Shown: piece after piece, positions 34,860 through 37,245 of the stretch
How positions within the stretch are numbered: position 1 is the first letter of the stretch
How the letters are laid out: each line of letters begins with the position of its first letter
DNA from: Acidobacteriota bacterium
GTDB taxonomy: Bacteria; Acidobacteriota; Terriglobia; Acidiferrales; 2-02-FULL-67-57
Assembly: GCA_016210855.1 (NCBI GenBank)
Contig: JACQTJ010000125.1
Location: 1 to 49,546 of the forward strand
Length of the DNA stretch: 49,546 nt
Reading direction: 5' to 3'
The notes under the pieces: generated by a model
What the model was told of the DNA's origin: nothing
The model's input: only the letters and a program-made list of their open reading frames with translations
The model's database searches: none
Made by a program: the position numbers and the translations under genes

Positions 34860-34936
34860 TGGCGCGCCCGGAGGGACTCGAACCCCCGACCTTCTGGTTC
34901 GTAGCCAGACGCTCTATCCAACTGAGCTACGGGCGC
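34860..34936 (-). tRNA. tRNA-Arg (anticodon ACG), CCA encoded
   Basis: Full cloverleaf on the minus strand: acceptor GCGCCCG/CGGGCGC, D-arm GCTCAGTTGGATAGAGC, anticodon arm TCTGG-CTACGAA-CCAGA (anticodon ACG), T-arm GGGGG-TTCGAGT-CCCTC, discriminator G and encoded CCA. A34 would be edited to inosine to read CGU/CGC/CGA. Confidence 0.97.
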
Positions 34937-35008: not shown

Positions 35009-36025
35009 CTAGAGCGGGCGTGTGCGGCAGGTGGCACCCTTGCCTTTCAGGCAATAGTCGTAGCAGTTCTTGTGCGCGATGTGCACACGCCGAAAGGACT
35101 CCTCAAGCGTCGTGCCCAGCTCGAATCGCGCATCGTCGTAAATCACCGGGCAGGGGTAGTAGCGCAGCACGCCCTCGCTCTTCTGCACGCACCGGCTGAA
35201 ATGGCACATCAGCGACTCGGGGGCTCTGTTCAAGCTGGAGAAACAGTTGGTGGTAACGAAGACTTCAGGCTTCGGCTCCTGACCCCGCTGGCCCAACTGC
35301 ACGAGTTGATTCCCCATCTCCAGCACGTTTTCAATCAAATTTACTTCGACCGGCCCCCGGAATAGCCCCTGGAAGTGGGCCCGAATCTCTTCGTCGGTTT
35401 GCTCGGAAAGGAAGGGCCGCTCCGCGGTGAGCACAGGCACGAAACCCATCTCCATCAGCTGCTTGATGGTCTCGACCGTCTGCGCAAAGGTTCCTTTGCC
35501 GCGAATGCCATCGTGTTCGGCTGCCCGCGGACTTTCCAAGGTGATGCGGACCCGCAAGCGGTCGCCGTGGCGCTCCCGCAGCTGCCGCAGGACGTCAAAA
35601 TGGTGGCGGATGTAACGCCGTCCGTTGGTGAGGATCTCGACCGGGGCGATTTCCAGCGCATACTCCAGGCTTCGGACGAACTCCTCGTTCCTCTTCGCCC
35701 GGCCGCGCAACACCGCCTCGTTCACGAAGACTTCACCGCCGGTGAAGCAGATTTTCTGGACTCCGAAGCGGGCGGCGGTGTCCAGGTGCGGGCGGAGCTC
35801 CGTGAAGGCGATTTGCTCCAGGCGGTTGTTGGAAGGTGAGGAAGCCGTATAGCAGTGCGTGCACTTCAAGTCGCAAAGCGATCCTTGCATCACCCAGAGA
35901 TCTTCGAGCACGAAGCGTCCGCCCAGCCGCTTCGGATCAACGAAGGCGCGCTGCTCGCCCTTGGCGTTCGTGAGGGCGAGGCCGTCGGGGTGCCGCCCGA
36001 GGAGCGTGGGGATGGCCGTGCCCAT
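35009..36025 (-). CDS. Radical SAM enzyme paired with the ArsM-like methyltransferase
   Basis: 338 aa. Radical SAM cluster motif CDLKCTHC (Cys 51, 55, 58), then the FTGGEV SAM-binding GGE motif and EILTNGR. A C-terminal Cys-rich part (LMCHFSRC, YYPCPVIYDD, NCYDYCLKGKGATC) could hold an auxiliary [4Fe-4S] cluster as in SPASM/Twitch enzymes. The first ATG that fits is 36025, overlapping the methyltransferase stop as TGATG, so the pair is translationally coupled. Product unknown. Radical SAM enzymes next to ArsM are known for arsenosugar (ArsS) and arsinothricin (ArsL) routes, but the sequence does not match what I recall of ArsS, and I do not name it. Confidence 0.85.
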   Translation of the reverse strand: MGTAIPTLLGRHPDGLALTNAKGEQRAFVDPKRLGGRFVLEDLWVMQGSLCDLKCTHCYTASSPSNNRLEQIAFTELRPHLDTAARFGVQKICFTGGEVFVNEAVLRGRAKRNEEFVRSLEYALEIAPVEILTNGRRYIRHHFDVLRQLRERHGDRLRVRITLESPRAAEHDGIRGKGTFAQTVETIKQLMEMGFVPVLTAERPFLSEQTDEEIRAHFQGLFRGPVEVNLIENVLEMGNQLVQLGQRGQEPKPEVFVTTNCFSSLNRAPESLMCHFSRCVQKSEGVLRYYPCPVIYDDARFELGTTLEESFRRVHIAHKNCYDYCLKGKGATCRTRPL

Positions 36026-37194
36026 CAGCAGCAGTCTCCCGGCCCACAAACGCTGGCTGCGGGGGCGAGGGTCTTGCGGTAGCGCTTTCCCTTGGTCTCG
36101 CGCGGGTCCCGCACCTCCGCCCCGCTGCAAACGAATCCACGGGCTCTCTTGAGCGGCACCTCGCGCCGGGGCGGCAGAGGAATGATGTCGTCAGCGTACG
36201 GAGCCTGGGTGAGAATCTTGTAAGTCTTGTCGCAGACCGCCATGCGCTGGCCGCGGCGCAAAACGTGTCCGTCGTCGTCCCGCACTTCCTTCCAGGGGCC
36301 CTTGTAGACGACCGCCTGGTAGCGCTCCAAGCACGGGCCTTCCTTGCCTTTGCGAGCGGTCACGGTGATGGAGCGGAATTCGATTCCGCGGACCGTCTGC
36401 CAGGGCTTCTGGTCATACTTTTCGATTTGAATGCCGTAGAAGCCGGCCCGCTCGAACGACTCCAGGAACTTGTCCTCACGGAAGGCGCCGGCGATACACC
36501 CACTCCAGAGCTTGGGGTCGCGTTTCATAGCGGCAGGCACGTCTTCGTCGGACACGATGTCACTGATGGCCACCCGCCCGCCGCGCTTCAGCACCCGGTA
36601 CATCTCCGCGAAAAGCTTTTCCTTGTCGGCGTCCTTTACCAGGTTGAGGACACAGTTCGAAATGATGACGTCCACCGACTCGCCGGCAATCAGCGGCGCT
36701 GCCGTGCGCAGCCGTTCGGTGAAGGCCTCGAAATCAGCCAGATCGGCGGCGGTGCGAACCGGCCGGCCCTTCAGGTAAGCCTCCAGCTCATCAAGCGGCA
36801 GGGCCAGATCTTGGATGCGGGCGCGGTGGAAGACGACGTTGTCATACCCCAGGCGCTCGGCGACCGTGGGCTGATGCTTGCGGGCCAGAGCCAGCATCTC
36901 TTCGTTCATGTCCACCCCGATGACCTTTCCCGTGGGCCCGACGATTTGAGCCGCGCTGTAGCAGACCTTGCCCGCGCCCGAACCCAGGTCGAGCACCGTA
37001 TCGCCGGTGCGCAAGTACGGCGTGGGGTCGCCGCACCCGTAGTCGCGCTCCACAATCTCGGCCGGGATCAGTTCCAGGGCGCGAGGGTCGTAGGTCACCG
37101 GACAACAAAGAGCCGGCTCCTTCTTTCGGGCCGCCTCGCTGTAGCGCGCCCGAACCGCCTGTTCACTGTCCATCAATGGCTGCCGACGTGGCAT
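36025..37194 (-). CDS. ArsM-like SAM methyltransferase with Cys-rich C-terminal extension
   Basis: 389 aa, about 100 longer than simple ArsM. SAM site VLDLGSGAGKVCYSAAQIVG and VIGVDMNEEMLALAR. The three As(III)-binding Cys of ArsM all have counterparts: DYGCGDP (Cys 54), ISNCVLNL and WSGCIAGAF. An additional vicinal pair ALCCPVTYD (Cys 30-31) precedes them. A C-terminal region of about 110 residues ends in VCGPGDCC, which could bind a soft metal or metalloid. Start ATG 37194 has AAGGAG 9 nt upstream. As(III) methylation is suggested by family; another thiophilic substrate is possible. First gene of the coupled pair. Confidence 0.85.
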   Translation of the reverse strand: MPRRQPLMDSEQAVRARYSEAARKKEPALCCPVTYDPRALELIPAEIVERDYGCGDPTPYLRTGDTVLDLGSGAGKVCYSAAQIVGPTGKVIGVDMNEEMLALARKHQPTVAERLGYDNVVFHRARIQDLALPLDELEAYLKGRPVRTAADLADFEAFTERLRTAAPLIAGESVDVIISNCVLNLVKDADKEKLFAEMYRVLKRGGRVAISDIVSDEDVPAAMKRDPKLWSGCIAGAFREDKFLESFERAGFYGIQIEKYDQKPWQTVRGIEFRSITVTARKGKEGPCLERYQAVVYKGPWKEVRDDDGHVLRRGQRMAVCDKTYKILTQAPYADDIIPLPPRREVPLKRARGFVCSGAEVRDPRETKGKRYRKTLAPAASVCGPGDCC

Positions 37195-37245
37195 GGTCGC
37201 TTCTCCTTGTCCGAGGCTTCGGCCCATTGGGCCCGAACGCTCGCT

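What the first reader, a model, noticed from the sequence alone, without database searches (positions are those of the whole stretch)
35009..37194. Coupled radical SAM enzyme and ArsM-like methyltransferase with a Cys-rich tail: possible organometalloid pathway
The methyltransferase keeps all three ArsM As-binding Cys, adds a CC pair at 30-31 and ends in VCGPGDCC after a 110-residue extension. The radical SAM partner has CDLKCTHC plus a Cys-rich C-terminus, and its start overlaps the methyltransferase stop. ArsM beside a radical SAM enzyme recalls arsenosugar and arsinothricin synthesis, but there is no arsR, arsB or acr3, and the enzyme does not fit my recollection of ArsS. The pair may make an undescribed metabolite or handle another thiophile.
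Basis: partly seen in the sequence, partly recalled or inferred. Interest (0 to 1): 0.68.

Follow-up and report, generated by a model that had tools for sequence, protein, structure and literature searches.

The report
ArsM with ArsS-replacing radical SAM partner
Two overlapping bacterial genes encode an arsenic-methylating enzyme and an unnamed radical SAM enzyme that, judging by its relatives, takes the place of the known arsenosugar enzyme ArsS, so that many bacteria may make complex organic arsenic compounds without ArsS.

Summary
A 389-aa methyltransferase (36025-37194, minus strand) and a 338-aa radical SAM enzyme (35009-36025) overlap as TGATG. The methyltransferase is ArsM-type. Its Cys 30, 54, 181 and 233 sit at the positions published for Burkholderia gladioli arsinothricin ArsM, and 49-62% identical relatives lie in complete arsenosugar clusters or in arsR-permease operons. 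The CC pair and the Cys-rich tail are family features, not oddities.

The radical SAM enzyme is not ArsS (35 bits, cut-off 300) or ArsL, and NCBIfam has no model for its family. Relatives sit 20-90 bp from an arsM in several phyla. In Nitrosomonas they occupy the place of ArsS in an otherwise arsenosugar-type operon.

In the sampled phylum, of 19 genomes with this arsM clade, 11 carry this radical SAM family, 7 carry ArsS, none carries both and one carries neither (P = 1.6e-4). The window's genome has no ArsS.

Best reading: arsM makes methylated As(III), and the radical SAM enzyme attaches a SAM-derived group to it, most likely 5'-deoxyadenosyl as ArsS does. The chemistry is inferred. The window's copy is divergent (at most 39% identity to any relative).

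The parts
36025..37194 (-). ArsM-type SAM-dependent methyltransferase, 389 aa, ATG at 37194 with AAGGAG at 37203-37208
   Evidence: NF040538 arsinothricin ArsM, 355 bits, cut-off 500, E 3.5e-106; best PDB matches are arsenite methyltransferases 8xt7, 4kw7, 4fr0
35009..36025 (-). Radical SAM enzyme, 338 aa, family without an NCBIfam model, ATG overlapping the arsM stop
   Evidence: (PF04055 60 bits; Rv1681 family 71 bits of 380; ArsS 35 bits of 300); model pLDDT 84.8
36023..36027 (-). TGATG: stop of arsM overlapping start of the radical SAM gene (translational coupling)
   Evidence: sequence
35852..35875 (-). CxxxCxxC (CDLKCTHC, residues 51-58), ligands of the SAM-binding 4Fe-4S cluster
   Evidence: invariant in 43 sequences
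35027..35206 (-). C-terminal Cys set C274, C292, C321, C325, C333 of the radical SAM enzyme, likely auxiliary Fe-S site; similar order in ArsS
   Evidence: all five invariant; fold search puts SPASM/twitch-type enzymes first
37102..37107 (-). Cys30-Cys31 pair of the methyltransferase (Cys30 = first ArsM Cys)
   Evidence: BgArsM Cys30 in PMC8552651
37033..37035 (-). Cys54 (YGCG), ArsM catalytic Cys
   Evidence: 40 of 42 aligned
36652..36654 (-). Cys181 (SNCVLNLV), arsenic-binding Cys
   Evidence: 42 of 42
36496..36498 (-). Cys233 (WSGCI), arsenic-binding Cys
   Evidence: 41 of 42
36028..36048 (-). Cys-rich tail CGPGDCC of the methyltransferase, a family feature
   Evidence: last two Cys in 38 of 42

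Best explanation
The pair is the core of an organoarsenical (arsenosugar-type) pathway in which an unnamed radical SAM family stands in for ArsS. Step 1 (strongly inferred from family and context): the methyltransferase binds As(III) through its conserved Cys and methylates it, probably to dimethylarsenite. Step 2 (inferred): the radical SAM enzyme reductively cleaves a second SAM at its CxxxCxxC cluster, and the resulting SAM-derived radical adds to the trivalent methylated arsenic. The most likely radical is 5'-deoxyadenosyl, as reported for ArsS, giving a dimethylarsinoyl nucleoside. Overlapping genes, and one-protein fusions of a radical SAM domain and ArsM in other genomes, suggest handover of a toxic intermediate. 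Later steps (base removal, glycosyl transfer) would use genes elsewhere. The genome carries one TIGR04283-type glycosyltransferase beside metK and ahcY, and phosphate-type permeases. Shown here: gene structure, family assignment of the methyltransferase, conserved pairing, and mutual exclusion with ArsS. Not shown: any reaction.
For: Methyltransferase: 355 bits to arsinothricin ArsM, full set of ArsM Cys, 49% identical to the ArsM of a complete Cupriavidus arsenosugar cluster with PHO4, ArsS, FAD/VTT, both glycosyltransferases and MtnP, and 53% identical to the methyltransferase of a Staphylococcus arsR-permease operon. Radical SAM: 10 of 80 named relatives lie by an arsM, 8 of them on the same strand with a 20-90 bp gap. 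In three Nitrosomonas loci the family sits between ArsM and VTT/FAD in a TIGR04282-TIGR04283-ArsM-rSAM-VTT/FAD operon without ArsS, where Acinetobacter has ArsS next to VTT/FAD. Partners switch repeatedly on the methyltransferase tree (ArsS label: starred branches force 5 changes). Genomes: this arsM clade and the radical SAM family co-occur (Fisher 2e-8). Among 19 genomes with this arsM clade, 11 carry the family, 7 ArsS, 0 both, 1 neither. Window genome: no ArsS over cut-off. Fusions of radical SAM and ArsM domains occur in about ten genomes. Profile comparison with ArsS: probability 99.2 over 273 columns.
Against: The window's radical SAM sequence is a long branch, at most 39% identical to any relative found, and its place in the family is unresolved. 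Similarity to ArsS is mostly the generic radical SAM core: the C-terminal regions alone align only weakly (hhalign 23.9%, P 8e-4, against 0.037 or worse for nulls), and a second branch of the family does not align there at all. Many relatives, including most alphaproteobacterial ones and many of the metallophosphoesterase-linked ones, have no arsM nearby, so some members may do something else. Two sampled genomes hold both ArsS and a family member (G026, G266), although neither has this arsM clade. Nothing else of an arsenic pathway lies near the pair in the window's contig. The genome is 87% complete, so an ArsS may be missing from the assembly.
Confidence: 0.66

Rival explanations
1. Same two-gene logic but different chemistry: the radical SAM enzyme transfers another SAM fragment (for example 3-amino-3-carboxypropyl, as ArsL does) or builds another C-As bond, giving a new organoarsenical rather than an arsenosugar precursor.
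For: The family is not orthologous to ArsS by curated model (35 bits of 300) and is associated in other branches with a metallophosphoesterase, another FAD enzyme or a phosphonate-type ABC transporter, which classical arsenosugar clusters lack. The methyltransferase falls nearest the arsinothricin ArsM model.
Against: No ArsL-like N-terminal region: ArsL is 425 aa with a long N-terminal domain and aligns poorly. Exact replacement of ArsS in the Nitrosomonas operons and mutual exclusion with ArsS favour the same product class.
Confidence: 0.2
2. The methyltransferase detoxifies arsenic alone, and the radical SAM enzyme acts on something unrelated (a nucleotide, peptide or sugar) and is only co-transcribed.
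For: Staphylococcal relatives of the methyltransferase work without any radical SAM partner. Many radical SAM relatives have no arsM near them. Fold search puts RiPP maturases and a sugar decarboxylase first.
Against: Recurrent pairing in several phyla within 90 bp, fusion proteins, co-occurrence beyond chance and exclusion with ArsS.
Confidence: 0.11
3. The pair handles a different thiophilic element such as selenium, tellurium or antimony.
For: Thiophilic Cys sites are not strictly selective, and ArsM-type enzymes can accept Sb(III) (own knowledge).
Against: All informative neighbours of relatives are arsenic genes (ArsR, ArsS, arsenosugar glycosyltransferases). No selenium genes were seen, and the in-frame TGA seen at the C-terminus of some relatives is their natural stop.
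Confidence: 0.03

Closest known systems
Arsenosugar pathway ArsM + ArsS (TIGR04167)
   Same: ArsM methyltransferase coupled to a CxxxCxxC radical SAM enzyme of about 330 aa with a conserved set of C-terminal Cys ending GxSC or GATC; same methyltransferase clade; same operon companions in relatives
   Different: The radical SAM enzyme fails the ArsS model (35 of 300 bits), lacks the clear DUF3641 match and the CNQxCxHCHVxAGP signature, and belongs to a separate family; no glycosyltransferase cluster beside the pair
Arsinothricin cluster arsQML (Burkholderia gladioli, Pseudomonas amygdali)
   Same: ArsM with the same four Cys positions; two-gene ArsM plus radical SAM logic
   Different: ArsL is 425-428 aa with CxxxCxxC near residue 194 and poor similarity; no ArsQ permease; methyltransferase only 39% identical to P. 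amygdali ArsM and under the model cut-off (355 of 500)
Rv1681 family radical SAM proteins (NF049973)
   Same: Best curated match of the radical SAM core for the window protein (71 bits) and for its relatives (98-118 bits)
   Different: Far below the 380-bit cut-off; matches only the core; function of Rv1681 not known to me
SPASM/twitch radical SAM enzymes (SkfB, BlsE, EpeE, anSME)
   Same: Predicted fold and a Cys-rich C-terminal domain likely to bind an auxiliary Fe-S cluster
   Different: No peptide substrate gene, 12-18% sequence identity, different gene context

Membership tests
ArsM arsenite methyltransferase | Class I methyltransferase fold with YGCG, SNCVxNL and WxxC arsenic-site motifs and four conserved Cys | tested here: met
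   Cys30, 54, 181, 233 conserved; top PDB matches are ArsM enzymes
ArsM arsenite methyltransferase | Association with arsenic genes | tested here: met
   Met for relatives at 49-62% identity (ArsS, PHO4, arsR); the window itself has only the radical SAM partner
ArsM arsenite methyltransferase | Methylates As(III) in vitro | not testable with these tools
   needs a bench assay
Arsinothricin ArsM (NF040538) | Score over the curated cut-off of 500 bits | tested here: not met
   355 bits
ArsS (TIGR04167) | Score over the curated cut-off of 300 bits | tested here: not met
   35.4 bits; genome scan 34.9 bits
ArsS (TIGR04167) | C-terminal DUF3641 domain | tested here: not met
   Only PF04055 matched; weak C-terminal profile similarity
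ArsS (TIGR04167) | Position in arsenosugar operons beside ArsM | tested here: inconclusive
   Met for family relatives in Nitrosomonas; in the window only the ArsM neighbour is present, no arsenosugar operon
ArsL (arsinothricin) | About 190-residue N-terminal domain before CxxxCxxC and ArsL-like sequence | tested here: not met
   CxxxCxxC at residue 51; poor alignment to P. amygdali ArsL
Radical SAM superfamily | CxxxCxxC, GGE motif and PF04055 over cut-off | tested here: met
   60 bits of 29.5; C51, C55, C58 and T95-E98 invariant

The most novel reading that the evidence does not exclude
The radical SAM family forms a C-As bond different from those of ArsS and ArsL, so that this pair makes an undescribed class of organoarsenical, possibly feeding arsenic compounds whose bacterial origin is still unexplained.
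Probability: 0.22. Interest if true: 0.85.

Novelty: new variant of a known kind. Interest (0 to 1): 0.6.

Why it matters
Only two radical SAM families, ArsS and ArsL, are described in the papers I could read as making C-As bonds. A third, unnamed family that replaces ArsS in several phyla would mean that surveys using ArsS as the marker miss many arsenosugar makers: here 11 of 19 sampled genomes with this arsM clade have the unnamed family and no ArsS. It also offers a simple two-gene system for testing who makes arsenosugars in soil and water.

Tried and rejected
Selenocysteine in the radical SAM C-terminus, suggested by TGA read-through hits, was rejected: the TGA is the natural stop. Membership in ArsS and in ArsL was rejected by model score, length and alignment. 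The Cys-rich tail as a special metal site was rejected as a distinctive feature because most relatives have it. A firm phylogenetic place for the window radical SAM protein was not reached: it groups with the metallophosphoesterase-linked branch (97/90) on a long branch, but joining it to the other branches is not rejected (AU p 0.33 and 0.19). A search for further arsenic genes in the same genome gave no ArsS, an ArsR in a mercury-type context, an Acr3-like hit under cut-off and a lone TIGR04283 glycosyltransferase. Paper searches found no description of an ArsS-replacing radical SAM family; that library lacks most subscription journals.

Full report
WHAT IS THERE. On the minus strand, a 389-aa methyltransferase (36025-37194) and a 338-aa radical SAM enzyme (35009-36025) overlap as TGATG, and the methyltransferase has an AAGGAG ribosome-binding site. 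Their GC and third-position GC match the neighbouring genes. Around them lie a tRNA-Arg (34860-34936), a PilZ protein, a 2-oxoacid:ferredoxin oxidoreductase pair and an AsmA-type protein. None of these is related to arsenic.

THE METHYLTRANSFERASE. NCBIfam puts it nearest to the arsinothricin ArsM (NF040538, 355 bits, cut-off 500), and the best PDB sequences are arsenite methyltransferases. Its Cys 30, 54, 181 and 233 coincide with the four Cys listed for B. gladioli ArsM (PMC8552651). They are conserved in 36, 40, 42 and 41 of 42 aligned relatives. The CC pair and the CC tail are equally general: the last two tail Cys are conserved in 38 of 42. In the same phylum, 19 of 296 other genomes carry the clade at roughly 49-62% identity.

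ITS PARTNERS ELSEWHERE. Relatives of the methyltransferase lie (a) next to genuine ArsS (437 bits) with PHO4, VTT/FAD and glycosyltransferases (L037, L038, L044, L045, L048), and in a complete Cupriavidus arsenosugar cluster (L117); (b) next to the radical SAM family of the window (L032, L034, L040-L043, L049, L050); (c) as the C-terminal half of radical SAM-ArsM fusion proteins of about 840-1240 codons (L052-L061); (d) in arsR-permease-methyltransferase operons on staphylococcal plasmids (L115, L116). On the methyltransferase tree the ArsS label needs at least 5 changes on well-supported branches, so partners have been exchanged repeatedly.

THE RADICAL SAM FAMILY. The protein passes PF04055 and no narrower model: Rv1681 family 71 of 380 bits, ArsS 35 of 300. 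In 43 aligned relatives, C51/C55/C58 and C261, C274, C292, C321, C325, C333 are invariant. The AlphaFold2 model (mean pLDDT 84.8) matches SkfB, BlsE, SuiB, EpeE and anSME, most of which I know as SPASM/twitch-type radical SAM enzymes. This suggests an auxiliary Fe-S site built from the C-terminal Cys. ArsS shows a similar order of Cys. Whole-length profiles of the two families align at 99.2% probability over 273 columns, but most of that is the shared core. The C-terminal parts alone align only weakly, though better than reversed or shuffled controls. I therefore call the family ArsS-like in working, not a member of ArsS.

CONTEXT OF THE FAMILY. A scan of 84,980 species genomes gave at least 554 relatives; the best 80 reach at most 36% identity to the window protein. 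Ten of these 80 have an arsM, eight of them on the same strand within 20-90 bp; the ten include Elusimicrobia, Balneolota, and Alpha-, Beta- and Gammaproteobacteria. In Nitrosomonas marina, N. mobilis and another Nitrosomonas the order is TIGR04283 GT - ArsM - this radical SAM - VTT/FAD oxidoreductase, with no ArsS. In N. marina a TIGR04282-type GT precedes it (100 of 134 bits) and the TIGR04283 GT passes its cut-off (194 of 182 bits). Acinetobacter has ArsS followed by VTT/FAD, the glycosyltransferases and ArsM. Other branches keep company with a metallophosphoesterase and an FAD enzyme, or with a TIGR04282 glycosyltransferase, DUF547 and a phosphonate-type ABC transporter. Many alphaproteobacterial copies stand alone.

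GENOME-LEVEL TEST. In 296 phylum genomes the family (27 genomes) and the arsM clade (19) share 11 genomes (Fisher P = 2e-8). ArsS occurs in 45. Among the 19 genomes with the clade, 7 have ArsS, 11 have this family, none has both and one (85% complete) has neither; P of no overlap = 1.6e-4. Relatedness among these genomes is not corrected for, but they span many families. Outside the clade two genomes hold both. The window genome has the pair and no ArsS.

MECHANISM. As(III) is methylated by ArsM, probably to dimethylarsenite, which passes to the radical SAM enzyme. A SAM-derived radical then adds to trivalent arsenic. By analogy with ArsS (adenosylation of arsenic; review PMC12159101) the group is most likely 5'-deoxyadenosyl. 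An ArsL-like aminocarboxypropyl transfer is less likely because the enzyme lacks ArsL's architecture and its family replaces ArsS rather than ArsL. The TIGR04283 glycosyltransferase elsewhere in the genome, beside metK and ahcY, could serve a later step, but that is only suggestive.

LIMITS. No reaction has been measured. The window's radical SAM copy is a long branch whose exact sister group is unresolved, so conclusions about the family carry over to it by its coupling to the arsM clade, its complete set of invariant Cys and the absence of ArsS in an 87%-complete genome. The mutual-exclusion test covers one phylum.

VERDICT. A real, conserved association. The methyltransferase is an ordinary ArsM. 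The radical SAM partner belongs to an unnamed family that most likely replaces ArsS. New variant of a known kind.

Noticed in passing
L052-L061: Single proteins of about 840-1240 codons that fuse a radical SAM domain (not ArsS) to ArsM; several lie beside PHO4, TIGR04283, DUF547 or FAD genes. Only one of the seven fusion-bearing genomes tested also has ArsS. This looks like another ArsS replacement.
   Followed up: partly
L059:285-3530, L060, L061: Three fusions carry further C-terminal sequence; in L059 it is DUF5714, resembling the metal-binding selenoprotein MbdU. The combined function is unknown.
   Followed up: no
L100-L114, L032, L034, L040-L042: A branch of the radical SAM family is nearly always followed by a metallophosphoesterase (over 50% identical) and often has an FAD enzyme, with or without arsM; an unnamed conserved module.
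   Followed up: partly
L119 and L138, L140, L143, L150, L162: In Roseomonas and relatives the radical SAM gene sits with a TIGR04282 glycosyltransferase, DUF547, a phosphonate-type ABC transporter, a metallophosphoesterase, VTT and FAD genes; possible arsenic or phosphonate uptake and conversion cluster.
   Followed up: no
L115:5726-8071, L116:5915-8284: Staphylococcal plasmids carry arsR, a permease and a methyltransferase 53% identical to the window's, with no radical SAM partner; annotated only as methyltransferase domain-containing protein.
   Followed up: partly
L223:7300-8199 (G000 contig 67): The window's genome has a stand-alone TIGR04283 arsenosugar-type glycosyltransferase over the curated cut-off, directly before metK and ahcY.
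   Followed up: partly
window 35690-35722: The window's radical SAM protein carries an extra stretch of about 11 residues (NEAVLRGRAKR, after GGEVFV) absent from all aligned relatives; it may mark a changed active-site loop or a drifting gene.
   Followed up: no
L132-L211, alphaproteobacterial copies: Many stand-alone copies of the radical SAM gene lie beside housekeeping genes (for example a glucose-6-phosphate dehydrogenase-like gene in Rhodobacteraceae) with no arsM near; their role is unexplained.
   Followed up: no
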